Of a DNA stretch of 64,000 nucleotides, positions 7,066 to 64,000 are shown one piece after another. The position numbers were made by a program, and so were the translations under genes. The stretch's first letter is position 1. Each line of letters starts with the position of its first letter. The stretch is taken from NCBI RefSeq assembly GCF_007625075.1, contig NZ_QMIE01000009.1:62001-126000 (forward strand), given 5' to 3'. The DNA comes from Oceanidesulfovibrio indonesiensis (GTDB taxonomy: Bacteria; Desulfobacterota; Desulfovibrionia; Desulfovibrionales; Desulfovibrionaceae). The notes under the pieces are model-generated. The model was not told the DNA's origin and searched no databases. It saw nothing but the letters and a program-made list of their open reading frames with translations.

Positions 7066-7152
7066 AGTCAGTTGATGATAAACGTCCGTTGCTTTGTGGA
7101 TTCACCGAAATTGAGCGCGACAATTATTCGGAACCTGGAAATTGGCTTTTCC

Positions 7153-7186
7153 AACTCGTGCTTAAGATTCTCCAAACGCACGAGTT
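7153..7186. terminator. Hairpin after the partner-switching operon
   Basis: AACTCGTGC (7153-7161) pairs perfectly with GCACGAGTT (7178-7186) around a 16-base loop, downstream of the stop at 7065. There is no U run, so terminator function is only probable. Confidence 0.4.
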
Positions 7187-7194
7187 AGGATATG

Positions 7195-7222
7195 CCGGCG
7201 GCATCACGGACTATGCCGCCGG
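7195..7222. terminator. Strong 10-bp hairpin between convergent genes
   Basis: CCGGCGGCAT (7195-7204) pairs perfectly with ATGCCGCCGG (7213-7222) around an 8-base loop, just beyond the stop of the radical-SAM gene. Together with the hairpin at 7153 it separates two convergent units. No U run on either side. Confidence 0.5.
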
Positions 7223-7232
7223 ATAAGCTCTC

Positions 7233-49556: not shown

Positions 49557-50528
49557 CTAGCGGATGCTTTTGACCGCCGAGACAATGTTCTCCACCCCGG
49601 GAATGTAGAACTGCTCCAGGGGCGGTGAAAAAGGAACCGGACAGAACGGGGCGCCTACCCGCTTGATGGGGGCGTCCAGGTACTCGATAGCCTCATCGGC
49701 GACGATGGCAGCGATCTCGGCTCCCGGCCCTGCGAACTGCACGGCCTCGTGGGCGATAACGAGCGCATTGGTTTTCTTGACGGATTCGATGATCAGATCC
49801 TTGTCCAGAGGCTGGAGGCAACGCGGGTCGACAACCTCCGCCTCGATGCCCTCGGCTTTGAGTTTCTCGGCCGCTTCCAGAGCCGTGTACACCATCTGCG
49901 AGGTCGCCACGATGGTCACATCGGCGCCCTCCCGTTTGATTTCGCCCTTGCCGATCTCGATGGTGTAGCTCTCGTCCGGCACCTCGCCTGACACGCCGTA
50001 CAACAGCTTGTGCTCCAGGAACACCACCGGGTTGTCGTCGCGTATGGCGCTGATGAGCAGGCCCTTGGCGTCGTACGGGGTGGAGGGGATAACGACCTTC
50101 AGCCCCGGGATATGCATGAACCAGGCTTCCAGGCTCTGGGAATGCTGCGCCGCCGCGCCGATGCCCGCGCCCTGAGGCATGCGCAACGTCATGGGCACTG
50201 TGGCCTTGCCTCCGAACATGAAGCGCATCTTGGCGGCCTGGTTGAACAACTGGTCCATGGAGACGCCGATGAAGTCCACGAACATCAGTTCGGCAACAGG
50301 ACGCAATCCGCTGGCGGCAGCGCCCGCAGCCGCGCCGAGAATGGCGCTCTCCGTAATGGGCGTATCAATTACACGTTCTTCGCCGAACTCGTCGAACAAT
50401 CCCTGGGTTACGCCGAAGCACCCGCCGAACTGTCCGACGTCTTCGCCCATGATAAACACGTTCTCGTCGCGTTCCATTTCCAGACGCAGCGCCTCGTTGA
50501 GAGCCTGCAAATATGTTTTCTCGGCCAT
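49557..50528 (-). CDS. acoB: Acetoin dehydrogenase-type E1 component, beta subunit
   Basis: 323 residues, the usual length of the E1-beta subunits. The N-terminal Pyr domain has YLQALNEALRLEMERDENVFIMGEDVGQFGG-like sequence with the catalytic Glu, and the C-terminal transketolase domain ends CPVPFSPPLEQFYIPGVENI. Its pair AcoA lies upstream. The two subunits form the thiamine-diphosphate enzyme that cleaves acetoin (or a related 2-oxoacid-like compound) and passes the acetyl group to the lipoyl arm of E2. The neighbour AcoX favours acetoin over pyruvate. Confidence 0.92.
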   Translation of the reverse strand: MAEKTYLQALNEALRLEMERDENVFIMGEDVGQFGGCFGVTQGLFDEFGEERVIDTPITESAILGAAAGAAASGLRPVAELMFVDFIGVSMDQLFNQAAKMRFMFGGKATVPMTLRMPQGAGIGAAAQHSQSLEAWFMHIPGLKVVIPSTPYDAKGLLISAIRDDNPVVFLEHKLLYGVSGEVPDESYTIEIGKGEIKREGADVTIVATSQMVYTALEAAEKLKAEGIEAEVVDPRCLQPLDKDLIIESVKKTNALVIAHEAVQFAGPGAEIAAIVADEAIEYLDAPIKRVGAPFCPVPFSPPLEQFYIPGVENIVSAVKSIR

Positions 50529-50577
50529 TGTATTTCTCCGTGGGGTCGATTTTCTTTTTGGAATGCTGCCGCTCGCC

Positions 50578-51537
50578 CTAAGCGTATACGTCGTCCATCA
50601 GCGCAGAGGTCGGAGGCAGGGGGCTTTCCTGCGCATATCTGACGGCTTCTTCGACCTCCTGTCCTATCCGCGCCTTGATGCTTTCCACTTCTTTCTCACT
50701 GAGGGTCTTGCTCTCCAGAAGCTTGCTTTCGAAACGAGGGAGCGGATCTTTGGCCATCCATTCTTCCAGTTCATCGACACAGCGATAGGTGCAAGCGTCG
50801 CCCTCGAAGTGTCCGCGCCAGCGGTAGGTTTTGCACTCCACGAGAGAGGGGCCTTCGCCCTTTCGTGCACGCTTCACCGCTTCGGTGACCGCCTCGAACA
50901 CGGCCAGCACGTCGTTGCCGTCCACCACGACGCCGGGCATGTCATACGCGGCTGCGCGATCGGCAATGTCCACCACGGCCATGGATTTACACTGTGGGCA
51001 GGAGATGCCGTATCCGTTGTTCTCGTTCACAAAGACCAGCGGCAGTTTCCAGGCGCTCGCCATGTTCAGAGACTCTTGCGTGGTGCCCTGGTTGGAAGCG
51101 CCATCGCCGAAGAAGCACAGGGCCACGTGGTCGGTCTTCTTGTACTTCGCAGCCAGAGCTGCGCCCACGGCCAGGGGACCGCCGCCCCCCACGATGCCGT
51201 TGGCGCCGAGAATGCCAAGGTCGAGGTCGGCAATATGCATGGAGCCGCCTTTGCCCTTGCAGTAGCCGGTCTGCCTGCCGAAAATTTCCGCCATCATCAG
51301 CTTGAGATCGCCGCCCTTGGCCAGAAGGTGTCCGTGCCCGCGGTGGGTGCTGGTGATCATATCCTTGTCGGTCAGAGCAGCGCACGCCCCGGTGGCGACA
51401 GCTTCTTCGCCCAGATACAAATGCACGAATCCGGGAATTTCGCCTGCTGCGAAAAATTCCTGCAATTTTTGCTCGAACATTCGAATCCTGTTCATCGTTT
51501 CGAACATGTGAACCAATGTCTGTTTGCTGAGAGCCAT
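50578..51537 (-). CDS. acoA: Acetoin dehydrogenase-type E1 component, alpha subunit
   Basis: 319 residues from ATG 51537 (AAGGAG upstream). The thiamine-diphosphate motif GDGASNQGTTQESLNMAS...ENNGYGIS is complete, and GFVHLYLGEEAVATG, GKGGSMHIAD and GGPLAVGAALA are E1-alpha features. The regulatory phosphoserine loops of the mammalian form are not conserved. It starts 37 bases after the Lin0512-family gene and is followed at 49 bases by acoB. Confidence 0.93.
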   Translation of the reverse strand: MALSKQTLVHMFETMNRIRMFEQKLQEFFAAGEIPGFVHLYLGEEAVATGACAALTDKDMITSTHRGHGHLLAKGGDLKLMMAEIFGRQTGYCKGKGGSMHIADLDLGILGANGIVGGGGPLAVGAALAAKYKKTDHVALCFFGDGASNQGTTQESLNMASAWKLPLVFVNENNGYGISCPQCKSMAVVDIADRAAAYDMPGVVVDGNDVLAVFEAVTEAVKRARKGEGPSLVECKTYRWRGHFEGDACTYRCVDELEEWMAKDPLPRFESKLLESKTLSEKEVESIKARIGQEVEEAVRYAQESPLPPTSALMDDVYA

Positions 51538-51574
51538 TGCTTTCGCTCCTTTTTCTCTGGTGAGTTGTTCGGCC

Positions 51575-51994
51575 CTATGTGGCGCACCCACAAGCACCGT
51601 CCCGAGATGCGCCACCACTGTGCTCCATGGCGTCCGTATCCACTGAGACAGTCAGGGCGGCGCAAGCGACAATGATGTTGCTTGTTCCCGGCCCAAAACA
51701 GGGAACTTCGATTCCGGCGACGCTCATGCCGCCTGCGATCACGGACACGGACTTCTCGCCAATGGGAATGGCGGCAAGCAGTTCCTCCGTGTCCACTCTT
51801 TCCGGTACAGGAACAGCAACGTCGGCATGCACATACACGCCCTGGAACTGGTTCCTGCCCCATATCTCCACAATCCCGCACAGACATGTTCTCGATATCG
51901 CGTCGCGGACTGCACGCACCGCGGCCTTGGTCATGTCTTCTCCGTGCATGTCGGCGGCGTAACCGAGTTCAATGGCGAATCGTTTTCTCGGCAT
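51575..51994 (-). CDS. Lin0512 family protein of unknown function
   Basis: 139 residues. RKRFAIELGYAADMHGEDMTKAAVRAVRDAI is the family opening, followed by VEIWGRNQFQGVYVHADVAVPVPE. Lin0512 proteins of about 115 residues are found in scattered bacteria, often in 2-oxoacid or acetoin operons, with no assigned activity. Here it lies between acoC and acoA, 12 bases after acoC. The C-terminal tail SRDGACGCAT contains two cysteines and is additional to the usual domain. Confidence 0.8.
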   Translation of the reverse strand: MPRKRFAIELGYAADMHGEDMTKAAVRAVRDAISRTCLCGIVEIWGRNQFQGVYVHADVAVPVPERVDTEELLAAIPIGEKSVSVIAGGMSVAGIEVPCFGPGTSNIIVACAALTVSVDTDAMEHSGGASRDGACGCAT

Positions 51995-52006
51995 GACGAC
52001 TACTCC

Positions 52007-53341
52007 CTACATGGTCATGAGGGCCGGGTTTTCCAGCATGTCCCCGAGCTCGCGCAGGAAGGTCATGGCCGGCGCGCCATCGGTGGTCATGTGGTTGAAG
52101 GTCAGGGAAAGGGTCATCATGCTCCGGATGCAGATCTCGCCATCCTTTACAGCGGGTTTTTCTACCACGCGGCCAATGCCCAGGATGCCGGTCTCCGGAG
52201 GGTTCAGGATCGGTGTGAAGCCATCGACACCCAGCATGCTGACGTTGCTTATGGTGAACGTTCCGCCGGTTATCTCGTCCATTGTCAGGCCACCCTTGCG
52301 CGCGCGGCCGGCCACATCACGGACGTGGCCCTTCAATTCTTCAAGGGAATAGGTGTCGGCCTGCTTGACGTTCGGGACGATCAGCCCATTGGGCAGGGCC
52401 ACGGCGATGCCGAGGTTGACGTGCTTATGCAGGTGGATGCCGTCCTCCTGCAGCGTGGAGTTCATGATCGGATGGCGCTTGAGTGCGCGGCACACAGCGT
52501 AGGAAATGATGTCGTTGTAGGACAGACGGTACTCGACATCGCGCTTGTTCCGCTCGTGAAGCGCGGCGCGCAGACGGACCATCTCCGTCACATCCAGCTC
52601 GACAAAGACCGAAAGCTGGGCAGCGCTTTGCAGGCTGGCGTGCATATTGTCCGCAACCAGTTTGCGCACACCTTCCATGGGCACGATGGTGTCCTGCACG
52701 GGCGCCTCGCGCGGCTCCGCCTGTTCAGGCTGGGACGGGTTCATGGCTCGCAGGATGTCCGCCTTGGTGATCCGGCCGCCTTCTCCAGTGCCGGCGATCT
52801 GGCTGAGATCGACACCTTTCCTGCGGGCGAATGCAATGGCCTTGGGGCTGGCGTTGACGCCGCCGCCGGAGTCCGCCGTGCTTTGCACGTCCCGCCTGGT
52901 GATGGCGCCGTTGGGACCGGTGCCCTCTACGGTGGCGAGATCAACGCCCAGCTCTTCGGCGAGCTTTCTTGCGGCAGGCATCGCCGGAACGAATGTCCCG
53001 TCCCCCTGGTCAGCCTCCTTAGCCGCAGGCGCTCCGACGGCCACCGTGGAAGCTTCCGGCGCGTCCGATAAAGTCCCGGAATCGACGCGTTCCGGTGCTT
53101 CTCCTTCAGCGGCGATAATGGCCAGAACCGCCTGGACCGGGGCGACCTCTCCCTCGGGCACGACAATCTGGAACAGAATTCCGCTGGCAGGCGCTTCAAC
53201 CGAGTTGGTTATTTTGTCGGTTTCCACCTCAAATAAAGGCTCTCCCTCTTTCACCGGATCGCCCTCTCCTTTCAGCCAGCGGACGATCTTTCCTTCTTTC
53301 ATGGTCAAGCCCCATTTGGGCATGATCACTTGTTGGGCCAT
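52007..53341 (-). CDS. acoC: Dihydrolipoamide acetyltransferase (E2) of an acetoin dehydrogenase-type complex
   Basis: 444 residues. Lipoyl domain (1-80) with the lipoylation lysine in FEVETDKITNSVEA, then two peripheral-subunit-binding domains: PAARKLAEELGVDLATVEGTGPNGAITRRDV-like (about 120-150) and SPKAIAFARRKGVDLSQIAGTGEGGRITKADI-like (about 165-197). The catalytic domain (about 225-444) has HxxxDG in FNHMTTDGAP. It is the core of the complex and transfers the acetyl group to CoA. An E3 gene is not present in the operon, so E3 is shared. It is the first gene of the operon, under a sigma-54 promoter. Confidence 0.93.
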   Translation of the reverse strand: MAQQVIMPKWGLTMKEGKIVRWLKGEGDPVKEGEPLFEVETDKITNSVEAPASGILFQIVVPEGEVAPVQAVLAIIAAEGEAPERVDSGTLSDAPEASTVAVGAPAAKEADQGDGTFVPAMPAARKLAEELGVDLATVEGTGPNGAITRRDVQSTADSGGGVNASPKAIAFARRKGVDLSQIAGTGEGGRITKADILRAMNPSQPEQAEPREAPVQDTIVPMEGVRKLVADNMHASLQSAAQLSVFVELDVTEMVRLRAALHERNKRDVEYRLSYNDIISYAVCRALKRHPIMNSTLQEDGIHLHKHVNLGIAVALPNGLIVPNVKQADTYSLEELKGHVRDVAGRARKGGLTMDEITGGTFTISNVSMLGVDGFTPILNPPETGILGIGRVVEKPAVKDGEICIRSMMTLSLTFNHMTTDGAPAMTFLRELGDMLENPALMTM

Positions 53342-53382
53342 GACATTCCTCCTGAATATTTTCTGTGGGCACAGCCAGCCAC

Positions 53383-53398
53383 TGCAACCGAGGTGCCA
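53383..53398 (-). promoter_or_regulatory. Sigma-54 (-24/-12) promoter of the acoC operon
   Basis: On the minus strand TGGCACCTCGGTTGCA equals the consensus TGGCAC-N5-TTGCA exactly. The initiation site would be about 12 bases beyond, near 53371, some 30 bases before the acoC ATG. Confidence 0.9.
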
Positions 53399-53461
53399 CT
53401 GAGGAATGCTCTTTCATATTGGGGGATTATAAGAAAATAATGGCGCTGTCGTCCCGGCTTA

Positions 53462-53473
53462 TGTTCGCGAACA
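53462..53473. promoter_or_regulatory. Candidate AcoR-site palindrome (inner)
   Basis: TGTTCGCGAACA is a perfect 12-base palindrome 64 bases upstream of the -24 element of acoC, a plausible upstream activating site. Confidence 0.45.
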
Positions 53474-53562
53474 GGACAGACTGGATACGTGGGGGAAATG
53501 TGCTGGTTTAATGTTTATGTCATTGTAATGGTTGGTCAAAAGGGAATGGCATGCAGGACGCG

Positions 53563-53581
53563 GTGTTCCAGAATTGAACAC
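53563..53581. promoter_or_regulatory. Candidate AcoR-site dyad (outer)
   Basis: GTGTTCCAGAATTGAACAC has perfect 6-bp arms around seven bases. It shares TGTTC/GAACA half-sites with the palindrome at 53462, but the spacer differs. It is also 84 bases from the acoR start, so it may act on either gene. Confidence 0.5.
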
Positions 53582-53664
53582 TTGACGAATACCGGTAGTT
53601 ACAGGGAAGTGAGCAATAGTTCGCCGATGGGGATAGTTTCTTTCTCACGAGTGGGAGGAAGACC

Positions 53665-55716
53665 ATGTATTCGCTCTTCAGAGATGGTGACAACTTTGGG
53701 ATTCGCCATGACTCACCCGGGGCATCGGAAGCGCAGGGGGCTATGTTGCCCCTGGGCTCCAGGTGCAAAGAATCGAGCGTGAACTACGCTCACTGGAAAC
53801 AGTTCATGGAAAAGGGCTGGCTTCCTGAGGGAGGGATCGAGAAAGCCCTGGTGGATTCATGGCGACGTTGCCTCGACATGGGAGTGGATCATGCGCCACG
53901 GAGTTGTTGGGATTTTATCCCCATGAAACAGCTTGAACCCTTCACGTCCGTCCTCGGAAAAATCGGCGCGGACATCGTGTCCGCGACCTACAACGCCATC
54001 AAGGGCAAACAGCTCTTGATCACCATCACGAACGCAAACGGCAGAGTGGCGCAAACCTGTGGCGACCTGGAGGTCCTGCGTCAGGCGGACAAACTGAATT
54101 TCGGTCCTGGAGCCAACTGGGCGGAAGAAAGTGTCGGCACCAACGCCATCGGCACGGCTCTCGCCACGGGCCGACCGATGCAGGTGTTCGGCGAAGAACA
54201 CTTCTGCCTCAGCCACCACAGCTGGAGTTGCACAGCAGCACCGGTTCTCGATCCCCATGGGAACGTATGGGGATGTTTCGACATTTCCGGAGAAAAGAAC
54301 GCTGATCATTCCAACTCGCTCAGTCTGGTGCTGCAGGCATCCAGAGCGATGGAGCAGCGGCTGTGCCAATTCTACTGCTCAGAGATCGAAGGAAAGATGA
54401 GTTCCCTTTTTTCGTCGATGTTCAACACAGTAATGATGGGCATCATCACGCTGGACAATACGGGGCATGTCATCAGCTCGAACAGTGCCGCGGAGTCATT
54501 GCTGGGTCGTCCCGGCTGCGCACTTCGCGGCCGGCAGGCAAGTTCGCTCTTTGATTTCGATACGTTGCTCGCCAAGATGAAGCATGCCTCCATGAGCGAA
54601 CCCGTGGTGCTCAAATGTTTTGCGGATCCCAGTCTGTTCGTTCGGGCAATACCCATCTTCGACACCAATGGGAGCTGGAATGATACCATTGTCACCATCA
54701 GCGAGCCGCAACGGCCCAGAGCCGCCGCAGCAACCCGGAACCAGAAAAAGAATGCCCCCGTACAAGGATTCGAAAAGGTCCTTCACAGCAGCGCGATAAT
54801 GCGCCAGGCGGTGCAACAAGCGGCCAATGCTGCCAGAACTCCCTCAACTGTTCTGCTTTACGGGGAGTCCGGAACCGGCAAGGAGCTTTTTGCCAAAGGT
54901 ATCCACCAGGCAGGCCCGCGCAACAAGGGCCCTTTCGTCGCCGTCAATTGCGGAGCGTTTTCCGGAGAACTCATTCAAAGCGAGCTGTTCGGGTACATGG
55001 AAGGGGCTTTCACCGGCGCCATGAAGCGGGGCCGGATAGGCAGGTTCGAAAAAGCGCACACGGGAGTGTTGTTTCTCGATGAGATCTCGGAGATGCCGCT
55101 TCAACAACAGGTCAACCTGCTCCGCGTGTTGGAAGAGCGCGCCATCGTTCCTGTTGGAGGGAACGACACCCGTTCCGTGGACGTGAAAGTTATTGCGGGC
55201 ACCAACAAAAACTTGTGGAATCTGGTTGAAAAAGGCGAATTCCGCGAGGACTTGTATTACCGGCTCAATGTGGTGGGCATTTCCATTCCTCCCTTGCGGA
55301 AACGTGGTGAGGATATCCTGCTGCTTGCGCGGCAACGCCTGCATCGCCTCTGTGCGGAGTTCAGTCTCCGGCAGGCGGAATTCGATCCGGAAGTCGAACA
55401 AATTCTCATGGGCTATGACTGGCCGGGCAACGTTCGGGAACTGTTCAACTGCCTGGAACATGCCGTCAACAATCTTGCCGGCGACATGGTTTTACCGGAG
55501 TACCTGCCGTCGTACTTGATGGATCGGTGCCGGGATAAGCCTGCCGTTGAACAGGACGCCGGGGCGGACGAGTTCCAACTCAAAAAGCGGGAAGCCGACA
55601 CCATCCGCGAAGCTTTGGAATTCCATGACGGCAACATCAGCAAAACGGCGAAGGCCCTCGGCATAGGGCGCAACACTCTGTATGCCAAAATGGAGAAATT
55701 CCATATCCAACCCTGA
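53665..55716 (+). CDS. acoR: AcoR-type sigma-54-dependent activator of acetoin genes
   Basis: 683 residues from ATG 53665 (GGAGGAAGACC upstream). The N-terminus (residues about 40-240) has the AcoR-type SWRRC segment and a GAF domain with WAEESVGTNAIGTALATGRP, VFGEEHFC and CTAAPVLDPHG. A PAS-like region lies at about 255-335. The AAA+ core has GESGTGKELFAKG, GAFTGA and LFLDEISEMP; the C-terminal Fis-like helix-turn-helix is GNISKTAKALGIGRNTLYAKM. It is divergent from the acetoin-type operon, whose promoter is a perfect sigma-54 element, so control of that operon is highly likely. Confidence 0.94.
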   Translation: MYSLFRDGDNFGIRHDSPGASEAQGAMLPLGSRCKESSVNYAHWKQFMEKGWLPEGGIEKALVDSWRRCLDMGVDHAPRSCWDFIPMKQLEPFTSVLGKIGADIVSATYNAIKGKQLLITITNANGRVAQTCGDLEVLRQADKLNFGPGANWAEESVGTNAIGTALATGRPMQVFGEEHFCLSHHSWSCTAAPVLDPHGNVWGCFDISGEKNADHSNSLSLVLQASRAMEQRLCQFYCSEIEGKMSSLFSSMFNTVMMGIITLDNTGHVISSNSAAESLLGRPGCALRGRQASSLFDFDTLLAKMKHASMSEPVVLKCFADPSLFVRAIPIFDTNGSWNDTIVTISEPQRPRAAAATRNQKKNAPVQGFEKVLHSSAIMRQAVQQAANAARTPSTVLLYGESGTGKELFAKGIHQAGPRNKGPFVAVNCGAFSGELIQSELFGYMEGAFTGAMKRGRIGRFEKAHTGVLFLDEISEMPLQQQVNLLRVLEERAIVPVGGNDTRSVDVKVIAGTNKNLWNLVEKGEFREDLYYRLNVVGISIPPLRKRGEDILLLARQRLHRLCAEFSLRQAEFDPEVEQILMGYDWPGNVRELFNCLEHAVNNLAGDMVLPEYLPSYLMDRCRDKPAVEQDAGADEFQLKKREADTIREALEFHDGNISKTAKALGIGRNTLYAKMEKFHIQP

Positions 55717-55886: not shown

Positions 55887-56417
55887 CTACATCCTGCTGT
55901 TTTTTCTTCTGCGCCGCGCCAGCAGGAACCCCACGCCGCCGAGGACCACGACGCCGGCCGCCATGAAGTATGTATGGCCGCCAGCCTTGGACGTGACCGG
56001 GCCGTGTCCCCCGCTGGAGATGCTGCCGTCCGGGTTGACGAACGTATAGATGCGCTCCTCGATGATCTGCCCGTCGGCCTCGACGTGATTCCAGGTGTTG
56101 TCCGCATTGCGCTGTAAATATAGCACCTCAGGCGACTGCTGAGCCGTCCTCGAGTCGTTGATCAATACATGCACCTCGGCAAGACCATCATGGACTTTGA
56201 TTTCATGGAATTCCCAGAGCTGATAACGGAATTTTCGGCCATCCTCGTCGATGCGGTTGTTCACATGCGGCTCCAGATAGAAAGCGATCTGGTCCGGAAT
56301 CAGGGTTTCGGACTGCAGGGTGATGCGCTCCAGACCTTGACGGCTGTGGGCATGGGCATTCTGGCAGAGCATCACGGAAAGAGCCGCGCATGCGAAGAAA
56401 AGTAAGCACTTAATCAT
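55887..56417 (-). CDS. Exported membrane-anchored protein of the pilus-like operon, C-terminal TM-Arg tail
   Basis: 176 residues from ATG 56417 (AAGGAG upstream). It has an N-terminal signal peptide (MIKCLLFFACAALSVMLCQNAHA), a soluble domain of about 110 residues rich in aromatic strands, and a C-terminal Gly-rich linker (GGHGPVTSKAGG), one helix (HTYFMAAGVVVLGGVGFLLA) and RRRRKNSR. This tripartite tail resembles C-terminal sorting signals, or simply a single membrane anchor; no LPXTG or PEP motif is seen. It overlaps the preceding gene by eight bases. Function unknown. Confidence 0.75.
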   Translation of the reverse strand: MIKCLLFFACAALSVMLCQNAHAHSRQGLERITLQSETLIPDQIAFYLEPHVNNRIDEDGRKFRYQLWEFHEIKVHDGLAEVHVLINDSRTAQQSPEVLYLQRNADNTWNHVEADGQIIEERIYTFVNPDGSISSGGHGPVTSKAGGHTYFMAAGVVVLGGVGFLLARRRRKNSRM

Positions 56418-56961
56418 TTGAATCTCCTTGAGTAATACTCTGTCTGGCAGCTTGAACGCGTTCAGCGGCCTGTACAGGATCGAGAGATTTCTCGACAAGG
56501 TCCTTCTCAAGTTGCTTCAGGGCGGCCACGGTTCGGGCTGTGTCCATGTCCATCTTTCCGGGATGTAGTGGGGCGAGCCGCACCGTGTCTTCGGAAGGGA
56601 GACGATTCGAATCCCCGGCATGGGAACCAGTTCGGTCCTGGTCCGGGGGGGCGCCCAGGTCTGCGGTGCTTGATGGACCGATTGAATCGCAGAGTGTGGC
56701 TTCGTACACGCCTGTTTGCCGGAGCCACCAGAGCAGCGTGATTATTGACGTGATTGCCAGGCCCAGAATCATGTTCCAGATGAAGGCGTCCTGCATGGGA
56801 GTAGCCATGCGGCTGTCCGCCCGGAACAGAAACAGCCAGGCGATGATGAACGACAGTATCGTTCCATTCAGACCGGCCAGTGCGACGAGCAGGGTGGCGT
56901 GGCGGATCTGCCGTCGCCTGCCGGTAAAAAACAGGTTCCGGGGAGGGATTTGTGTGTTCAT
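56410..56961 (-). CDS. Two-helix inner-membrane protein of unknown function
   Basis: 183 residues. Two hydrophobic helices (ATLLVALAGLNGTILSFIIAWLFLF and FIWNMILGLAITSIITLLWWL) are followed by a soluble, polar C-terminal part of about 90 residues, ending in an amphipathic helix (LKQLEKDLVEKSLDPVQAAERVQAA). It resembles a platform or scaffold protein in type II/IV systems only in outline. It starts 26 bases after the 127-residue protein and is in the same operon. Confidence 0.75.
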   Translation of the reverse strand: MNTQIPPRNLFFTGRRRQIRHATLLVALAGLNGTILSFIIAWLFLFRADSRMATPMQDAFIWNMILGLAITSIITLLWWLRQTGVYEATLCDSIGPSSTADLGAPPDQDRTGSHAGDSNRLPSEDTVRLAPLHPGKMDMDTARTVAALKQLEKDLVEKSLDPVQAAERVQAARQSITQGDSND

Positions 56962-56987: not shown

Positions 56988-57371
56988 TTACGGTCCCGTG
57001 TAGACCAGATCATCATCGGTGCCGTGCAGGGTGTCCGGCCCTGCGCTGACGAGCCGAAAGGTCTTGCCTTTGGCCGAGGTTGAGTATTCCCAGGGCGTTC
57101 CCCATACATCCAGGGCAAGTTCGCGGGACTGGTTTTCCTTGAAGGTCTTGCGCATCCAGTCCTCAAAGCGGGATTTATCCGGATAGCGGCCGGTGCGGAC
57201 GTATTCGTAATCGAGCATCATACCGATATTGCGCATATCCATTGCGCTCACCACGTATAGTGTCTGGGCTGTGACTTCGTGGTAAAAGCGCTCGATGTCC
57301 TCCGCATTGCCGGCGATGAGTCCCAGAGAGAGGCCCAGGGCAAGGAGCTTTGTTACGAACGATTGCATCAT
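56988..57371 (-). CDS. Small GspG-tail pseudopilin-like protein without prepilin leader
   Basis: 127 residues with an N-terminal hydrophobic helix (FVTKLLALGLSLGLIAG). No prepilin-cleavage G|xxxxE motif is present. The C-terminal half has the GspG signature: LDVWGTPWEYSTSAKGKTFRLVSAGPDTLHGTDDDLVY-like region, namely D-W-G-x-P, S-A-G-P-D, and T-D-D-D. In GspG this acidic loop binds calcium. It may be a minor pseudopilin variant or a soluble capping subunit of the filament. It begins six bases past the stop of the large pseudopilin. Confidence 0.75.
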   Translation of the reverse strand: MMQSFVTKLLALGLSLGLIAGNAEDIERFYHEVTAQTLYVVSAMDMRNIGMMLDYEYVRTGRYPDKSRFEDWMRKTFKENQSRELALDVWGTPWEYSTSAKGKTFRLVSAGPDTLHGTDDDLVYTGP

Positions 57372-57377
57372 CCCTCG

Positions 57378-59489
57378 TCAGGGTTTGGGGCCCAGGGAAA
57401 CACGCGGGGACGTGCCGGGATGGATAATTACATGGGCGGCATATCCTGGAGGCCCCTGCATGTCGCTGCCGTCCCGGCTTTCGCTCCTGGACGGGCAGGC
57501 GTGATATGTAGCGTTGTCTGTCGTATAGCTGTCGTCCCGAAGAAAGACGAAACAGGACCCGATAGAAAGCCAGGGCGCATTGTCCGGGGGCGTGGTGTCA
57601 ACTGTGGAGAGTCCCCAGTCGGCATAATGCGAGAGGTTTTCTGATGGGATGTCGTTCCAGTCTTCCTGCGCACCGGTGAACGAAACGCGCCAGGAAGCCC
57701 CGTCAGAAGATGCCGCCACGTGCCGGGAGCGCAGCAGTCCGTTTTCCACTCGGACGAGCTCAACAAAATCATTGTCCGATATCGTCACGTCGCCCCAGCC
57801 CGAGCCGGAGGAACCCTCGATGTCGACAACCACAGGCATCTCGTATTCGTTACGGAAAATACTCACGAAAACGTTGTCTTGATTGCCGGCGAGTGTTGCA
57901 TTGAAAACGTCGCCTTCATCCGCAGCGCCGTCCGGTCCAGGGCTGAAGATTCGCAGTTCCTTAGGCTGACCCGCCGTGTCGCCGCCCAGATCGACGGCGA
58001 AATTCACAGCGTTGCCCCAGGCATCGGTGAGTATTTCGGAGCCGAGTGGCGCGTATGGGCCGCGCCAACCGGCGCCCAGCCCCACGGTGGAGTTGAACTC
58101 CCAGGCCGGCAGTACCTGCGATGTATAATCGCGCGTGGAGACGTACGTCTGAACCCAGGGTTGGTCCGCAAAGCCGTTGTCCGCGATCCAGTTCGTGCTG
58201 GCAGCTGAAGGCGCGCCCGAGCAGGAATCCGCGGCGCAGCGGTAGTGCACGCCGTCATGGAGCACGTAATCGTAATTGATATAGAGTAGTTCAGGTTGGG
58301 GGGCGTAGTATTTGCGACCTTCCTTCCAGGTTGGTGCGAAGGCGTATCCGCTCGTATCCGGACTGATGAGGTTCCAGTGGCTGGCCGAAATGCCGGGAGC
58401 GTTGCCCGTGGTGGACTCGTGTCTCAGGAGGCAGGAGTAGACCCCGCTGCCGTGTTTGACCACGGATCCTGCAAGGGGCTCCAGGGTGCCGATGTCGGCG
58501 ATGAATCCGTTTGGTTGCAGCACGCCGTCCGTGATCGTGCCTGATCTGCCTGCGACACCGGTTTTCAAAGCGTCCAGAACCCGGCGCGTGGAGGCGATTT
58601 TCTGGTCGTCCAGCCGCCATTCAGTTGCCGCAATTTTGAGAATGATGTTGTCTGCGTTGGCGGAGAGCACGTTCCCGCTTGCATCCCGCAGGGGATCCTC
58701 GGGGTCGAAGGAAAAGTCGATCTGCCGGTCAGGGCCTGCGCTGATGGCATACAGATCGTCGCCATACCCGTCGTTGTTCCGGTCCTTGCCTGCCCGGTAC
58801 ACGACCAGGGCCGACCCCCAGCCGTCCAGAAGGCGGTTCTTTCGACCCTGGCGCAGCAGAAAACGCCGGTTGTTCTGCTTTTCTGCTGCGCCGGAGGGAG
58901 ATGGTTTAAACTCGAACAGGTCGTCATCGTTGGCGTAATTGTCCACGGGCAGGACCACATACGGGCCGTTCCAATTCGCGGCCTCCACGATTTCAACGAA
59001 GCCGCCGTTTTCCGTCACGCCTTCGGTTTTCAGCGAGGTTTCCCAGAGCCCCACGGGCATGGCTGCGTCATCGCCTGGCGCATCGCCCCAGGCAACCTTG
59101 ACGTCGGTTCCGTTGTTGTTCGTCTGCATGGGGTAGTCGGAGCCGTCATTGGGATGCACGAACCCGGAAGAGCCGCTGTCCCAGTTGAAAACGTAAAGAT
59201 CGGGCAGTTTGCCGAAATCCCCCACGTATCCGCCAATAACGCGGTCGCCCCGGTCGTCGAAACTGTTGGGTGCTCCCAGTACGGCGAAGCGCAGAGCCTC
59301 GAAGAGCGCGAGAGTCTTTTCACGTTTCGCGTGGTTGTCCATGCCTGCGCTTATGGGCAGGACCATAGCTGTGAGGACGCCCAGAATGCCAATGACTATT
59401 ATGAGCTCCATGAGAGTCATGCCCTGCGATCCTCCACGCTGAGAAGGACAGGGCGACCTGCCTGGGGATGGGTAATCAGCGACGTTCAT
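57378..59489 (-). CDS. Very large pseudopilin with duplicated GspG-like lobes and chitin-binding-like modules
   Basis: 703 residues, about five times a normal pseudopilin. A 23-residue leader ends in SQG, followed by MTLMELIIVIGILGVLTAMVL: the prepilin-peptidase site G|MTLME with Glu at +5, so the start at 59489 is right. Two GspG-like lobes follow: WNGPY...DGWGSALVVY...ISAGPD (about 170-265) and WRGPY...TDAWGNAVNF...FSPGPDG (about 495-545). Between them are two segments, SGVYSCLLRHESTTGNAPG...W and GVHYRCAADSCSG...W (about 365-460), like CBM5/12 chitin-binding modules. The C-terminus (about 560-703) has no known fold. It suggests a secreted or pilus-tip carbohydrate-binding subunit. Confidence 0.88.
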   Translation of the reverse strand: MNVADYPSPGRSPCPSQRGGSQGMTLMELIIVIGILGVLTAMVLPISAGMDNHAKREKTLALFEALRFAVLGAPNSFDDRGDRVIGGYVGDFGKLPDLYVFNWDSGSSGFVHPNDGSDYPMQTNNNGTDVKVAWGDAPGDDAAMPVGLWETSLKTEGVTENGGFVEIVEAANWNGPYVVLPVDNYANDDDLFEFKPSPSGAAEKQNNRRFLLRQGRKNRLLDGWGSALVVYRAGKDRNNDGYGDDLYAISAGPDRQIDFSFDPEDPLRDASGNVLSANADNIILKIAATEWRLDDQKIASTRRVLDALKTGVAGRSGTITDGVLQPNGFIADIGTLEPLAGSVVKHGSGVYSCLLRHESTTGNAPGISASHWNLISPDTSGYAFAPTWKEGRKYYAPQPELLYINYDYVLHDGVHYRCAADSCSGAPSAASTNWIADNGFADQPWVQTYVSTRDYTSQVLPAWEFNSTVGLGAGWRGPYAPLGSEILTDAWGNAVNFAVDLGGDTAGQPKELRIFSPGPDGAADEGDVFNATLAGNQDNVFVSIFRNEYEMPVVVDIEGSSGSGWGDVTISDNDFVELVRVENGLLRSRHVAASSDGASWRVSFTGAQEDWNDIPSENLSHYADWGLSTVDTTPPDNAPWLSIGSCFVFLRDDSYTTDNATYHACPSRSESRDGSDMQGPPGYAAHVIIHPGTSPRVSLGPKP

Positions 59490-60183
59490 AGATGGCCTTC
59501 AGGTGTGGATCGGCGACGCGTACATCGGCAGCGTCGATCAGCCTGGCCAGGTAGCTGTCGAAGGCGTCACGTCGTTTTTCTTCCAGGAGTATGGTGTGGA
59601 GCTGTTCGCTGACGTCCTGAAACGATGCGCCGGGGTACTTTTCCTTGTCCAGCTCGTACCTGGCGAGTACCTGGTCCTCGGCAACGTCGACTGATGCGAC
59701 GATTTTCTCGGCCACGAGTCGGTTGACCGAGGCTTGTTGACTCCATATCTCCGAGTATTGTTGCTCCGTCATGCCGGCTTTTGCCAATGCCTGCCGAAAA
59801 TCTTCCTGTTTTTTGTAGCCGTTGCGGATGATGGTGGCGCGCAGCGCGCCCCCGGATAACTCGACTGTGAGCCCCTGGCGCCGTGCTTGTTGCTCCAGCA
59901 GCTTCATGGCCACGAGGTTGTCGAGCACGTCCCGCTGGTGTTGGGCCAATGAGCTGCTGCCGGATTCTTCCGACGCCGCGTCGTCCTTGCGGAGCACGTC
60001 ACGAAGTGCATTGTCGAACATCCAGCGCGGCACCGCCTCGCCGTTCACCTCCAGCAGCGTGGAGTTGTCCTGGGCGGCGATGATTTCGGCGTCGGACGGA
60101 ATGGCTTCGGAACATATCGCAACGTCGGGAACGGCAAGGGTCAAGGCGAAGCAGAGAATTGAAAGAAAGAGAGTGTATTGCAC
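59476..60183 (-). CDS. SurA-N-like periplasmic chaperone, no PPIase domain
   Basis: 235 residues from GTG 60183, chosen because AGGAGG lies six bases upstream; a longer ORF starts at 60270 without such a site. A signal peptide (VQYTLFLSILCFALTLAVPDVAICS) precedes a SurA_N-type helical domain: VNGEAVPRWMFDNALRDVLR, LDNLVAMKLLEQQARRQGL. The parvulin PPIase domain is missing, so it would act as a holding chaperone for exported subunits, such as the large pseudopilin that follows (14-base overlap). The match is to family pattern, not a definite assignment. Confidence 0.75.
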   Translation of the reverse strand: MQYTLFLSILCFALTLAVPDVAICSEAIPSDAEIIAAQDNSTLLEVNGEAVPRWMFDNALRDVLRKDDAASEESGSSSLAQHQRDVLDNLVAMKLLEQQARRQGLTVELSGGALRATIIRNGYKKQEDFRQALAKAGMTEQQYSEIWSQQASVNRLVAEKIVASVDVAEDQVLARYELDKEKYPGASFQDVSEQLHTILLEEKRRDAFDSYLARLIDAADVRVADPHLKAIYERR

Positions 60184-60202
60184 GGTCGCCTCCTGGTTGG
60201 TT

Positions 60203-61420
60203 TCAGAGGCCATAGACGGCCAGCATTCCTGAGATGAGCCCGTAGAAGACAAAACCGACAATCGATCCAAGTGTCAGTATGAGCAGGGGCTCGACCATTG
60301 AGTTCATTCGCTTGATGTTTGATTCCAGTATCTTGTGATAGATGTCGGCGGCGAGATCCAGCACCTTGACCAATTCTCCGGTTTCCTCGCCGGTGGCTAC
60401 CATCTCTCCCACCATGTTCGGGAAAATGCGTGGATTTCGCAGCAGCGGTCCGGAGATGGCATGGCCTTCGAGGACGTCCTCCATTATTTCATCCATGACC
60501 ATGACTGCGGCTTTGTTGCCCAGGGTGCCGCGCACGGTATGCAGGGCATCCATAAGGGGCACGCCGCTGGAGAACAGGATCGCCATGTTCTTTGAAAAAT
60601 TTACGACAATGCCGCAGCGCAACACGCCGCCCACGAGAGGGATGCGCAGCAGCACTACATCGATGATCTTCCCGCCTTCTTCGGTTTTGCGGAATACGAC
60701 GATGAAAACGATCAGGCAGACGATGCCGACGAACAGGTGCAGCCAGTAGGACTGAATCCAGTTGGAAGCGTCCATAATAGTCTGGGTGGCGAAGGGCAGA
60801 GAACGCCCCCGTTCGCCCAACAATGGCTTGAACTTGGGGATGACCCAGAGCGCAAGAATGCCGATGACGATTCCCGCTGTGATGACCACGATGCCGGGAT
60901 AGATCATGCTCGTGATGATCTGCCGTTTGAAGGCTGCGGACGCCTCAAGCCGGTCCGCCAGGCTGTTCAGGGCGAGTTCCATTTCACCAGTGATTTCGGC
61001 AGCCTTTACGATGTTGATAATGTAAGGCGTGAACACGCGATGCTGGGACATTGCCTCGGAAAGGGGCACTCCGCTTTCTACGGAGAGGCGCACCATTTGC
61101 AGCATCTTCTTGGTCCCGGCCCTTGAGGTTTGCCGTTCCAGTATGTTGAAGGCCTGGACGATGCCGAGGCCCGAGTCCAGCAGGACGGCAAGTTGCCGGA
61201 AAATAAGCACGAGGTCTTTCCGGCGGGCCGGGTTCAGCCATACTGTCATCGAACCGGCCTCGGCCGCTGCGACCTTGCCGTCGGCCATCGGCTTTACCCT
61301 GAGAACGAAGCGGCCGCTTTTTTTGATCATGTCGGCGGCATCAGCAGAGGAGGCGGCGGAGAGTATCTCGCTGCGTTCCTTGCCCGAAGCATCGAGAGAA
61401 GTGCAGTGGAAACGCGGCAT
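60203..61420 (-). CDS. PilC/GspF-type inner-membrane platform protein
   Basis: 405 residues, normal for the family. The T2SSF domain occurs twice: FRQLAVLLDSGLGIVQAFNIL (about 75) and FSKNMAILFSSGVPLMDALHTV (about 275), each followed by hydrophobic helices; the C-terminus ends GFVFYGLISGMLAVYGL. It is the membrane platform on which the PilB/GspE ATPase drives filament assembly. Its ATG overlaps the stop of the ATPase gene (TAATG). Confidence 0.95.
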   Translation of the reverse strand: MPRFHCTSLDASGKERSEILSAASSADAADMIKKSGRFVLRVKPMADGKVAAAEAGSMTVWLNPARRKDLVLIFRQLAVLLDSGLGIVQAFNILERQTSRAGTKKMLQMVRLSVESGVPLSEAMSQHRVFTPYIINIVKAAEITGEMELALNSLADRLEASAAFKRQIITSMIYPGIVVITAGIVIGILALWVIPKFKPLLGERGRSLPFATQTIMDASNWIQSYWLHLFVGIVCLIVFIVVFRKTEEGGKIIDVVLLRIPLVGGVLRCGIVVNFSKNMAILFSSGVPLMDALHTVRGTLGNKAAVMVMDEIMEDVLEGHAISGPLLRNPRIFPNMVGEMVATGEETGELVKVLDLAADIYHKILESNIKRMNSMVEPLLILTLGSIVGFVFYGLISGMLAVYGL

Positions 61421-63117
61421 TAGTCCCCCACGGTCACACGGAGCACTTCTTCCACTGATGTGGCGCCCTGCATGGCCTTGTTCACGGCGTCCGCGCGCAG
61501 TGTCGTCATGCCCTGGTCGAGGGCTGCGCGGCGGATGGATTCTGTGGAACCGTTTCGCAGGATTTCGGAGCGTACTTCGTCATTTACGAGCATCAGTTCG
61601 AAAACTCCGGTCCGTCCGCGATAACCGGTGTTGAAACAGGAGGGGCATCCCACAGGTCTGCACCAGGAGGCCGCTTCCGGGTGGTCCCCGTTCGCGGATG
61701 TAACGCCCAGGCTTTTAAGCATGGCGGCGTCCGGTGTGAAGCGTTCCTTGCATTTTTGGCATAGCCGCCGCACCAGCCTTTGGGCCAGGATGCCGGAGAC
61801 CGAGGAAGCTACGAGAAACGGCTCGCAGCCCATGTCCACGAGGCGCGGCAGAGCCCCAGGGGCGTCGTTGGTGTGCAGGGTGGTGAAGACCAGGTGTCCG
61901 GTGAGGGCCGCACGAAGCGAGATGCTCGCAGTCTCCTGGTCCCTGGTCTCGCCGACCATGATAACGTCCGGATCCTGGCGCAGGATGGAGCGCAGCGCGC
62001 TGGCAAAGGAAATCTTCTCATTATGCCGGATTTGCACCTGATTCACGCCGTTGATTTTGTATTCGACGGGATCTTCGACCGTAGTGATGTTGATGTCCGG
62101 GTGATTGATGGTGTTGAGCGCTGCGCACAGGGTAGTGGATTTGCCCGAGCCGGTGGGGCCCACGATGCAGATGATGCCGTAGGGTCTCCTGATGATGGAG
62201 CTGAATTTTCCGTAGTCCTCGGAAGAGAGTCCGAGCTGATCAATCGTGAGCCTGTTCGAATAGCCGGCGAGTATGCGCAGCACAACTTTCTCGCCATGCA
62301 CGATGGGCAGGGTGGAAACGCGCAGGTCGAAGTTTTCGTGGACATCCTCGAAAACGATGGCGCCGTCCTGTGGACTGCGGCGCTCTGCAATGTTCAGTCC
62401 GGCCATGACCTTGATGCGCGAGGTCAGGGAGGCAAGCATGTCTGGCGAGTAACGCTTGATCTCCTGGAGCACGCCGTCGATGCGGAAACGCAGCCGCACC
62501 GTGTCCTCGCCTGGTTCGAGGTGGATGTCCGAGGCCTTGAGCCGCAGTGCCTTGAGTATGATGTCGTTGACGATCTCCACGGCTGAGCCGTCGTCCAACT
62601 CGGCGCTCATGCTTTTTTCGTAAATCCGGGCAAGGGCATCCCGGATCTTGCCGGAAGAAGCGATGTGCAATACAACGCAACGTCTGGTCCGGCGTTCGAT
62701 GTTTTTGAGCGCCTGCGCCGACAGAGGACGGTCCACAGCTGCTTCGAAGTTGTCCTCGTTCAGACGCAACGGGACCATGGCCTGCCGCTCTGCCACGCCG
62801 GGGGGCAGCAGCTTGGCAGCAGCCGGATCGATGACGACATCGTCCAGGTTGATGTAGGGGATGCCGGAACAGTCGGCGATGGCCCGGGCCACATCCTCCT
62901 CGGTGACATGGCCGAGCCGGCGCAGAGCCTCTCCAAGCGGAATGTTTTCCTTGACTTTGATGCGCAGGGCCTCTCGCAGCTGTTCCTCGGTAATCAGCCC
63001 CCGTTCGACGAACGCTGAACCGAGCTGACGATCATTAAGCGGGCTGGAGCCCTTGGCGCCTCCATTGCCTCGGTGAAGCCCGGAGGCTGCGCGCAGCTGG
63101 GCACGGTGTTCAGGCAT
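61420..63117 (-). CDS. PilB/GspE-type assembly ATPase
   Basis: 565 residues. The N-terminal MshEN-like domain (about 30-170) is present, followed by the core: GSAVEIVNDIILKALRLKASDIHLEPG, Walker A GPTGSGKSTTL, Asp box and EDPVEYKI, Walker B RSILRQDPDVIMVGETRD, His box AALTGHLVFTTLHTND. The four-cysteine metal-binding insert CQKCKERF...CPSCFNTGYRGR is complete. It powers pilus or pseudopilus extension. It overlaps the pilT-like gene by eight bases. It may be type II secretion or pilus type; sequence alone does not settle this. Confidence 0.95.
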   Translation of the reverse strand: MPEHRAQLRAASGLHRGNGGAKGSSPLNDRQLGSAFVERGLITEEQLREALRIKVKENIPLGEALRRLGHVTEEDVARAIADCSGIPYINLDDVVIDPAAAKLLPPGVAERQAMVPLRLNEDNFEAAVDRPLSAQALKNIERRTRRCVVLHIASSGKIRDALARIYEKSMSAELDDGSAVEIVNDIILKALRLKASDIHLEPGEDTVRLRFRIDGVLQEIKRYSPDMLASLTSRIKVMAGLNIAERRSPQDGAIVFEDVHENFDLRVSTLPIVHGEKVVLRILAGYSNRLTIDQLGLSSEDYGKFSSIIRRPYGIICIVGPTGSGKSTTLCAALNTINHPDINITTVEDPVEYKINGVNQVQIRHNEKISFASALRSILRQDPDVIMVGETRDQETASISLRAALTGHLVFTTLHTNDAPGALPRLVDMGCEPFLVASSVSGILAQRLVRRLCQKCKERFTPDAAMLKSLGVTSANGDHPEAASWCRPVGCPSCFNTGYRGRTGVFELMLVNDEVRSEILRNGSTESIRRAALDQGMTTLRADAVNKAMQGATSVEEVLRVTVGD

Positions 63118-64000
63118 CTATGCGCTCCAGTCGCGGCAGGATGATGGATTCGTTTTTGGCCATGCGCAGGGCTGAATCGCGGTCTATCTTGCCCTCCCGG
63201 TAAAGATCCGCCAGGGACAGCTCCATGGTCTGCATCCCGAGTCTGCCGCCGGTTTCGATGGCAGAGTATATCCGCTCCAGCTTGCCCGAACGGATCAGGT
63301 TGGAAATGGCCGAGGTGACTTTCATGACTTCCACCGCGGCCACTCGACTCTCTCCGTTCATGTGCTTGAGCAGGCGCTGGGAGACAACGCCTTTCAATGT
63401 GGCGGAGAGTTGATGGCGGATCTGGGCCTGTTCTTCGATGGAAAAGACGCCGATCATGCGCGTGAGAGACGAAATGGCGTCGCGCGAGTGCAGGGTGGAG
63501 AAAACGAGGTGGCCTGTTTCTGCAGCCATGATGGCGGTGCGCATGGTGTCCAGGTCGCGCATCTCGCCGACGAGTATCACGTCCGGATCCTCGCGCAAGG
63601 CGTCGCGCAGGGCCAGTGAAAACGAGGGCACGTCGGTGAAGAGCTCGCGCTGGGTGACCAGGGACCTGATGTTGGAGTGCACGAACTCCACCGGGTCCTC
63701 GATAGTAATGATGTGGCACGATTTGTTGCGGTTGATCTTGTCGATAATGGCCGCCAGAGTAGTCGACTTGCCGGATCCAGTGGGGCCGGTCACAAGGACG
63801 AGGCCGTCCTTGAGTTCGGAGAAGCTGTCTATCCCTGAAGGCATGCCAAGTGCACCCAGTGTCAACTTCAGGCTCGGCAATTTTCTGAAAACAGCAGCCA
63901 ACGCGCCGCGCTGGTAGAAAATGTTGACCCGGAAACGGTGGTCGGCGTCATAGGTGTATGCCAGGTCCACGGAAGACTTCTCTTCCAGCACATTGCGCTG
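63110..64000 (-). CDS. PilT-type retraction ATPase, 5' end outside window
   Basis: The 296 visible residues include VNIFYQRGALAAVFRKLP, Walker A GPTGSGKSTTLAA, EDPVEFVHSN, Walker B REDPDVILVGEMRD, AAETGHLVFSTLHSRDA and the C-terminal IRSGKLERIYSAIETGGRLGMQTME-like motif, the AIRNLIREGK-type retraction signature. The GTG at 63991 is internal: codons upstream (QRN) are in frame to the window edge, so the start is missing. PilT depolymerises type IV pili; its presence upstream of the PilB/GspE gene in the same operon favours a retractable pilus over a pure type II secretion system. Confidence 0.92.
   Translation of the reverse strand, partial: QRNVLEEKSSVDLAYTYDADHRFRVNIFYQRGALAAVFRKLPSLKLTLGALGMPSGIDSFSELKDGLVLVTGPTGSGKSTTLAAIIDKINRNKSCHIITIEDPVEFVHSNIRSLVTQRELFTDVPSFSLALRDALREDPDVILVGEMRDLDTMRTAIMAAETGHLVFSTLHSRDAISSLTRMIGVFSIEEQAQIRHQLSATLKGVVSQRLLKHMNGESRVAAVEVMKVTSAISNLIRSGKLERIYSAIETGGRLGMQTMELSLADLYREGKIDRDSALRMAKNESIILPRLERIDA

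What the first reader, a model, noticed from the sequence alone, without database searches (positions are those of the whole stretch)
57378..59489. Giant pseudopilin built from two GspG-like lobes and two chitin-binding-like modules
Seen: a class III-like prepilin leader cleaved before MTLMEL, then a 680-residue mature protein; two W-x-GPY ... D-x-WG ... GPD lobes resembling GspG C-termini; between them two 30-40-residue segments with the VYxC...TxxNxPG...W pattern of CBM5/12 modules. Known: major pseudopilins are about 140 residues and have one such lobe. Inference: duplication of the GspG fold plus insertion of carbohydrate-binding modules has produced a filament or tip subunit that recognises an extracellular polymer such as chitin.
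Basis: partly seen in the sequence, partly recalled or inferred. Interest (0 to 1): 0.85.

Follow-up and report, generated by a model that had tools for sequence, protein, structure and literature searches.

The report
Two-headed giant pilin, carbohydrate-binding-like inserts
A bacterial pilus operon encodes an unusually large pilin whose globular head has been duplicated and, in two of the ten relatives found, carries inserted segments that resemble chitin- or cellulose-binding modules, so it is probably a sticky tip subunit of a retractable pilus.

Summary
In detail: 57378-59489(-) encodes a 703-residue class III prepilin. Ten full-length giants (this one included) share leader, long α1 and two homologous heads (hhalign 99.6%, E 4e-24; reversed control 0.1%). 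Single-head pilins link the heads to GspG. The repeat is a whole head (helix plus sheet), not only the GspG C-terminus. Two CBM5/12-like segments (about 339-376 and 385-438) sit inside head 2; both beat all 300 shuffles and lead a sliding scan, but stay below Pfam's cut-off. They occur in 2 of 10 giants, at the same place, as conserved as the heads. All ten giants lie beside a second large prepilin family, a PilO-like gene and a secretin; PilT and PilB follow in nine, the tenth contig ends first. This is a modular pilin, most likely a tip or minor adhesive subunit. Chitin as ligand is unsupported: no GH18 match in either carrier genome, and both AlphaFold models were too poor to test folds. 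The operon recalls the little-described Pih pilus of Pelobacter carbinolicus (large prepilins, a pilin without the PilD motif); kinship could not be tested. New variant of a known kind.

The parts
57378..59489 (-). giant two-headed prepilin gene, 703 aa
   Evidence: nine full-length relatives in other genomes
59421..59489 (-). class III leader peptide, residues 1-23, cleavage predicted G23|M24, Glu at +5
   Evidence: TIGR02532 19.4 bits over cut-off 16.3
59277..59420 (-). alpha-1 helix, residues 24-71
   Evidence: helix 26-71 is the only part of the model with fair confidence (10-residue block means 59 to 89 over residues 21-80); 26 of 51 residues identical to G115 over 21-71
58614..59276 (-). 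pilin head 1, residues 72-292
   Evidence: hhalign head 1 vs head 2 99.6%, E 4.3e-24; T2SSG Pfam hit in head 1 of relative G035, 23.8 bits over cut-off 21
58476..58613 (-). N-terminal part of head 2, residues 293-338: second helix and the GFIADIGTLEPL motif matching GGYVGDFGKLPDL of head 1
58362..58475 (-). CBM5/12-like segment 1, residues 339-376 (resembles the later part of the module)
   Evidence: Pfam PF02839 16.7 bits in the whole protein, 19.2 in the 121-aa stretch, cut-off 26.2; hhalign score 27.4, 0 of 300 shuffles reach it
58176..58337 (-). CBM5/12-like segment 2, residues 385-438 (W388...Y395...V409...Y416-R-C418...C423...P427...W434)
   Evidence: hhalign score 25.5, 0 of 300 shuffles; sliding scan; PF02839 weak match (9.0 bits) at this place in the genome-wide search
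57834..58154 (-). sheet part of pilin head 2, residues 446-552
57381..57833 (-). C-terminal domain, residues 553-703, poorly conserved (34 of 147 identical to G115), unknown fold
   Evidence: no similarity to C-termini of single-head pilins by hhalign
56988..57371 (-). 127-aa GspG-like head without a class III leader, 6 bases downstream of the giant
   Evidence: PF08334 27.5 bits over cut-off 21; orthologues near the end of the operons of G061 (44%) and G464 (41%)
56410..56961 (-). 183-aa ORF downstream, no clear family
55887..56510 (-). 207-aa protein with a C-terminal membrane tail (membrane reading is mine); relatives near the giants of G115, G061, G043 and G464
59476..60270 (-). SurA-like periplasmic chaperone-family protein; its stop overlaps the start of the giant
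   Evidence: PF13624 45.4 bits; homologue directly before the giant in G115
60203..61420 (-). platform protein (GspF/PilC family)
   Evidence: PF00482 163 bits
61420..63117 (-). extension ATPase (PilB/GspE family) with MshEN domain
   Evidence: PF00437 431.6 bits, PF05157 60.2 bits; cyclic-di-GMP-binding motif model NF053729 48.7 over 38
63110..64000 (-). PilT-family retraction ATPase, start lies beyond the window
   Evidence: TIGR01420 389 bits over cut-off 319.1; complete 370-aa ORF at L004:7111-8223

Best explanation
The protein is a modular type IV pilin. Shown by sequence: a class III leader and a single α1 carry two tandem copies of a GspG-related pilin head plus a C-terminal domain, and in this lineage two CBM5/12-like segments have been inserted between the helix part and the sheet part of the second head. 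Inferred: a prepilin peptidase (encoded elsewhere, contig C11) cleaves the leader, α1 anchors the subunit in the filament, the operon's SurA-like protein helps the large periplasmic part fold, the PilB-like ATPase extends and PilT retracts the filament through the dedicated secretin, and the giant, encoded once per operon, sits at or near the tip where the inserted segments touch an extracellular ligand, probably a polysaccharide. The 316-430-residue prepilin family encoded in the same operons would supply the shaft. Chitin is only one possible ligand.
For: Leader and α1. Heads homologous to each other (99.6%, E 4e-24; reversed 0.1%) and joined to GspG through single-head pilins (giant leader+head 1 vs single-head 99.2%; single-head vs GspG 98.6%, E 1e-15; both include the leader) and directly through the sheet motif (head 2 vs GspG E 4e-4, reversed 0.33). 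The CBM-like segments each beat 300 of 300 shuffles, lead a sliding scan, and are 43% identical (45 of 104) between the two carriers against 38% for head 1, 36% for head 2 sheet part and 23% for the C-terminal domain, which suggests selection. Ten of ten giants lie beside a PilO-like gene and a secretin; PilT and PilB homologues follow in nine and PilC in eight; the contigs of G077 and G051 end first. One giant per operon, one to three of the 316-aa family, two or three in 4 of 10. Published precedent: modular pilins carry adhesive modules and are thought tip-exposed (PMC8179133, passages).
Against: No usable structure model. Pfam CBM_5_12 cut-off not met; the G115 stretch gave no Pfam hit and as a single sequence only 6% against the CBM profile. 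Segment 1 matches only part of a CBM. No ligand evidence; no GH18 match in the two carrier genomes. Tip position and minor status rest only on gene counts and precedent; the giant keeps Glu5, which a body subunit would also have. The SurA-like protein here shows no similarity to the PPIase of the G061 operon (E 0.59), so a shared foldase is a matter of gene kind and place only.
Confidence: 0.6

Rival explanations
1. Same two-headed pilin, but the inserts are not carbohydrate-binding: they are structural ornaments of head 2 or bind a protein partner.
For: CBM scores are below curated cut-offs; segment 1 is partial; eight of ten giants do without them; the only above-cut-off PF02839 match in G115 lies in another protein that looks like a phage structural protein (the phage reading is my own recall).
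Against: The insert is at least as conserved as the heads and keeps Trp/Tyr/Cys positions.
Confidence: 0.25
2. It is a pseudopilin of a type II-like secretion system whose large heads capture a secreted substrate in the periplasm.
For: PilM/N-like parts in one protein (PilN Pfam at its C-terminus), secretin best NCBIfam match is GspD (178.8 bits, below cut-off 351.35), heads related to GspG.
Against: PilT-family ATPase in the operon over its cut-off and PilT homologues in nine of ten operons; no T2SSG match at E<=1e-15 in the genome; the review PMC10191384 (passages) gives loss of PilT as the step to T2SS.
Confidence: 0.12
3. The giant is itself a main shaft subunit, giving a thick filament decorated along its length.
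For: Glu5 present; no ordinary 140-residue prepilin was recognised in the operon, only a leaderless 127-aa head.
Against: One copy per operon while the 316-aa family is always alongside and multiplied in 4 of 10; the bulky modular pilin PilB could be modelled only at the tip (PMC8179133 passages).
Confidence: 0.15

Closest known systems
Modular type IV pilins (PilB and PilC of Streptococcus sanguinis; PMC8179133, passages read)
   Same: class III leader plus pilin module plus extra module not specific to pili; PilC has a lectin module
   Different: here the pilin head itself is duplicated and the extra segments are inserted in the second head instead of being appended at the C-terminus; that paper's main text holds neither 'chitin' nor 'CBM'
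GspK and ComZ (as described in PMC8179133 passages)
   Same: extra domain inserted inside the pilin head
   Different: one head only as described there; GspK has an α-domain and ComZ a β-solenoid
GspG, major pseudopilin (PF08334, TIGR01710)
   Same: leader, α1, W-x-GPY / D-x-WG / GPD sheet motifs
   Different: GspG is about 140 residues with one head; the giant scores 32 bits against a cut-off of 88.85 and only in the leader
Pih pilus of Pelobacter carbinolicus and P. propionicus (PMC3543383, section 18 part 1 of 2 read)
   Same: unusually large prepilins and a pilin lacking the PilD motif; compare the leaderless GspG-like ORF 56988-57371 and its orthologues in G061 and G464
   Different: three large minor pilins and an own putative peptidase PihH there; no such peptidase recognised in this operon; sequence kinship not testable here
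Carbohydrate-binding module family 5/12 (PF02839)
   Same: W..G..Y...V...Y.C...P...W spacing, profile similarity
   Different: below Pfam cut-off; segment 1 partial; longer loop in segment 2

Membership tests
class III prepilin / type IV pilin | G|xTLxxE-type leader followed by a hydrophobic α1 helix | tested here: met
   TIGR02532 19.4 over 16.3; helix 26-71 in the model; conserved in all ten giants (and L073)
GspG (TIGR01710) | score over 88.85 bits across the protein | tested here: not met
   32 bits, residues 22-69 only
GspG (TIGR01710) | single head, about 140 residues | tested here: not met
   two homologous heads, 680-residue mature chain
[quoted passage not shown]
   motif met; extra domain supported by profile comparison and shuffles but below the Pfam cut-off
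[quoted passage not shown]
   needs biochemistry
CBM5/12 | Pfam PF02839 gathering score 26.2 | tested here: not met
   16.7 bits whole protein, 19.2 bits in the 121-aa stretch, none for the G115 stretch
CBM5/12 | CBM5/12 fold | tested here: inconclusive
   AlphaFold pLDDT 34 on the segment
CBM5/12 | binding of chitin or cellulose | not testable with these tools
   needs a binding assay
type II secretion system | no PilT; canonical GspG | tested here: not met
   PilT-family ATPase 389 bits over 319.1; no T2SSG match at 1e-15 in the genome
MSHA pilus | PilT lost, MshN gained (PMC10191384 passages) | tested here: not met
   PilT present in the operon; MshN itself not searched
type IVa pilus | secretin, PilM/N/O, extension and retraction ATPases, platform | tested here: met
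   PilM/N in one ORF with only the PilN part recognised by Pfam; the ORF in the place of PilP has no Pfam match
type IVa pilus | PilHIJK minor pilins and PilY1 | not tested
   none recognised in the operon; genome not searched for them
Pih pilus | sequence kinship to PihA, PihD, PihO, PihQ, PihH | not testable with these tools

The most novel reading that the evidence does not exclude
A distinct, barely described branch of type IV filaments in which the filament is made of oversized prepilins together with a leaderless soluble GspG-like head and a dedicated foldase, the tip subunit being a tandem-headed pilin whose second head serves as an exchangeable display scaffold for ligand-binding inserts such as CBM5/12.
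Probability: 0.3. Interest if true: 0.72.

Novelty: new variant of a known kind. Interest (0 to 1): 0.52.

Why it matters
It suggests that pilus subunits can be diversified by duplicating the pilin head itself and using the spare head as a display scaffold, and it gives a natural comparison set (two giants with inserts, eight without) for testing what an insert adds. It also points to a rare pilus operon whose filament composition is unknown.

Tried and rejected
PDB sequence searches with the insert stretches gave only unrelated names at E 0.07 or worse; the whole protein matched GspG 5wda at E 0.002, mainly by the leader. AlphaFold on the full protein (seven sequences) gave pLDDT 36.9, on the insert alone 34.3, so no fold search was run. 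The idea that the C-terminal domain descends from the C-termini of single-head pilins was tested by hhalign and dropped (0.2% at best). Head 1 against GspG alone is weak (11%, E 0.0027). The two inserts do not match each other well (5%). Ten further phylum genomes at E<=1e-8 (of 12 of 395) match only within the first 126 of 643 model positions; four of those ten were fetched and showed no giant of this family, six were not looked at. The CBM profile was built from four domains; of six loci, the two of G404 were dropped because my script did not show a clear domain in frame, and a short fragment typed for G473 was removed before use. The GspG profile uses 10 of 30 loci, the ones my script could cut out. 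The SurA-like protein was compared with the G061 PPIase without success. On re-checking, my first claim that PilT follows wherever a stretch reaches far enough was not borne out by the first fetch (G043 showed none in the 1.1 kb after the secretin); a further fetch found it about 1.2 kb past the secretin.

Full report
Observation. The ORF at 57378-59489(-) is open for 703 codons. Its leader fits the class III pattern (TIGR02532 19.4 bits over 16.3; Pfam N_methyl 20 against a cut-off of 21.2). Its start overlaps the stop of a SurA-like gene, and 6 bases after its stop a 127-aa GspG-like ORF begins. Full-length relatives in nine other genomes keep the frame, so the gene is real.

Relatives. In the order of the host, 8 of 348 genomes (own included) have a match at E<=1e-8. 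In a phylum sample 12 of 395 do: besides the own genome only G464 matches beyond the first 126 of 643 model positions. A named record, a Geobacter sp. UBA2189 MAG, adds one (L073). The ten full-length giants measure 586 to 732 residues. G001, the one same-genus genome I saw listed, has neither the giant at E<=1e-8 nor the companion prepilin at E<=1e-12, so the distribution is patchy.

Heads. In an alignment of the ten giants, residues 72-292 and 293-552 of the window protein match each other by hhalign at 99.6% (E 4.3e-24); with one profile reversed the value is 0.1%. The repeat includes a helix (T..LxALxxxVxG here) and the motif G[YF]xxDxGxLxxL before the sheet motifs, so the unit is a whole pilin head. 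Direct comparison with a GspG profile is weak but in register (head 2 E 4.4e-4 against 0.33 reversed; head 1 E 0.0027 against 0.11 reversed). Single-head pilins from WOR-3 and Methylophaga MAGs bridge the gap: giant leader plus head 1 against them 99.2%, they against GspG 98.6% with E 1e-15; both bridge alignments include the leader, which inflates them. Pfam T2SSG finds head 1 of G035 over its cut-off (23.8 against 21) and of G043 just under it (19.1).

Inserts. Pfam CBM_5_12 gives 16.7 bits in the whole protein and 19.2 in the 121-aa stretch, below the cut-off of 26.2, and nothing in the G115 stretch. In the six-frame search of the own genome, two of the three matches at E<=10 fall inside this ORF, one at each segment (14.3 and 9.0 bits, E 0.23 and 9.7). 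Profile comparison of each segment (G000 and G115 aligned) with four CBM5/12 domains scores 27.4 and 25.5; 0 of 300 column shuffles reach either. Scanning along the G000-G115 alignment, the best 13 of 89 scored windows lie within residues 304-442 and the next scores 16.1 against 28.5. The other eight giants, each scanned as a single sequence at this place, give at most 3.2%. Against the reading: as single sequences G000 gives 42% and G115 only 6%, the two segments barely match each other (5%), and the test profile is small; one of its four domains also comes from G115, from another protein. Between G000 and G115 the insert is 43% identical (45 of 104, 33 gap columns) against 38% in head 1 (40 gap columns), 30 to 36% in head 2 and 23% in the C-terminal domain.

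Operon. Upstream of the giant the strand carries, in order away from it, SurA-like protein, PilC/GspF, PilB/GspE with MshEN, PilT, secretin, a 179-aa ORF in the place of PilP without Pfam match, PilO, a PilM/N-type ORF (Pfam PilN at its C-terminus) and a 316-aa prepilin. G115 has the same order, with a SurA-like gene again just before the giant. In the other eight loci the giant follows the 316-aa-type prepilins and precedes a roughly 500-aa ORF in the place of PilM/N (a BLAST match to the own protein only in G061 and G464; PilN below its Pfam cut-off in G051; the rest by position), a PilO match and the secretin. With the longer stretches PilT and PilB homologues are seen in nine of ten operons and PilC in eight: the G077 contig ends after the secretin and the G051 contig after PilB. 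A PPIase-type gene follows PilC in G061 and G075 and, below the Pfam cut-off, in L073; the G061 one is not similar to the SurA-like protein here. The leaderless GspG-like head occurs near the end of the operon in G000, G061 and G464, and relatives of the 207-aa protein in G000, G115, G061, G043 and G464. Of 23 of 348 genomes with a match to the 316-aa family at E<=1e-12, nine match far beyond the leader: the eight with the giant and G282, whose copy holds a stop and lies on a 10-kb contig. The own genome has a prepilin peptidase on contig C11 (PF06750 113 bits) and a second secretin system on C7.

Function. The operon says type IV pilus rather than type II secretion: PilT-family ATPase over its cut-off and no T2SSG match at E<=1e-15 in the genome. 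Precedent says modular pilins are widespread (over 1,200 proteins, 264 architectures) and likely tip-exposed (PMC8179133, passages). I therefore take the giant to be a tip or minor adhesive subunit with the inserts as contact surface; tip position, folding help by the SurA-like protein and polysaccharide binding are inference. Chitin is not favoured: no GH18 match in G000 or G115 at E<=0.01 (0 of 2).

Known or new. The nearest system in print that I met is the Pih pilus of Pelobacter carbinolicus (PMC3543383, section 18 part 1 of 2 read): large minor pilins and a pilin without the PilD motif, which recalls the leaderless head here, in G061 and in G464. I could not test kinship. Ten literature searches showed me no tandem-headed pilin and no pilin with CBM5/12 modules in the listings and passages I saw; most subscription papers and all supplements were out of reach. 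I file it as a new variant of the modular pilin.

Noticed in passing
window 56988-57371(-): GspG-like head of 127 aa without class III leader but with a signal-peptide-like N-terminus (my reading) ending GNA before E/D, shared with G061 (L141:3880-4260-); a third relative in G464 (L147:5079-5390-). May be a soluble pilin head or an analogue of PihA.
   Followed up: partly
L004:15229-16635(+) and L046 14160-15197(+): SpoIID-family gene beside the pilus operon in both genomes that carry the CBM-like inserts; no match in the other loci compared, which cover only the fetched stretches.
   Followed up: partly
window 55887-56510(-): Protein with a C-terminal tail that matches LPXTG-anchor models and, just under cut-off, MYXO-CTERM; relatives near the giants of G115, G061, G043 and G464.
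   Followed up: partly
G282 (L137 about 7044-7928; L142 about 7502-7701): Copies of the 316-aa prepilin and of the leaderless head are interrupted, suggesting a decaying operon; no full giant seen on these 10-kb contigs.
   Followed up: partly
L046 15618-16574(+): In G115 a prepilin-peptidase-like ORF (judged by eye, motif recalled, no family search) lies downstream of the giant, unlike in the own genome.
   Followed up: no
window 49557-55716: Acetoin dehydrogenase-like genes on the minus strand with a sigma-54-type regulator on the plus strand next to the pilus operon (read from translations, no family search).
   Followed up: no
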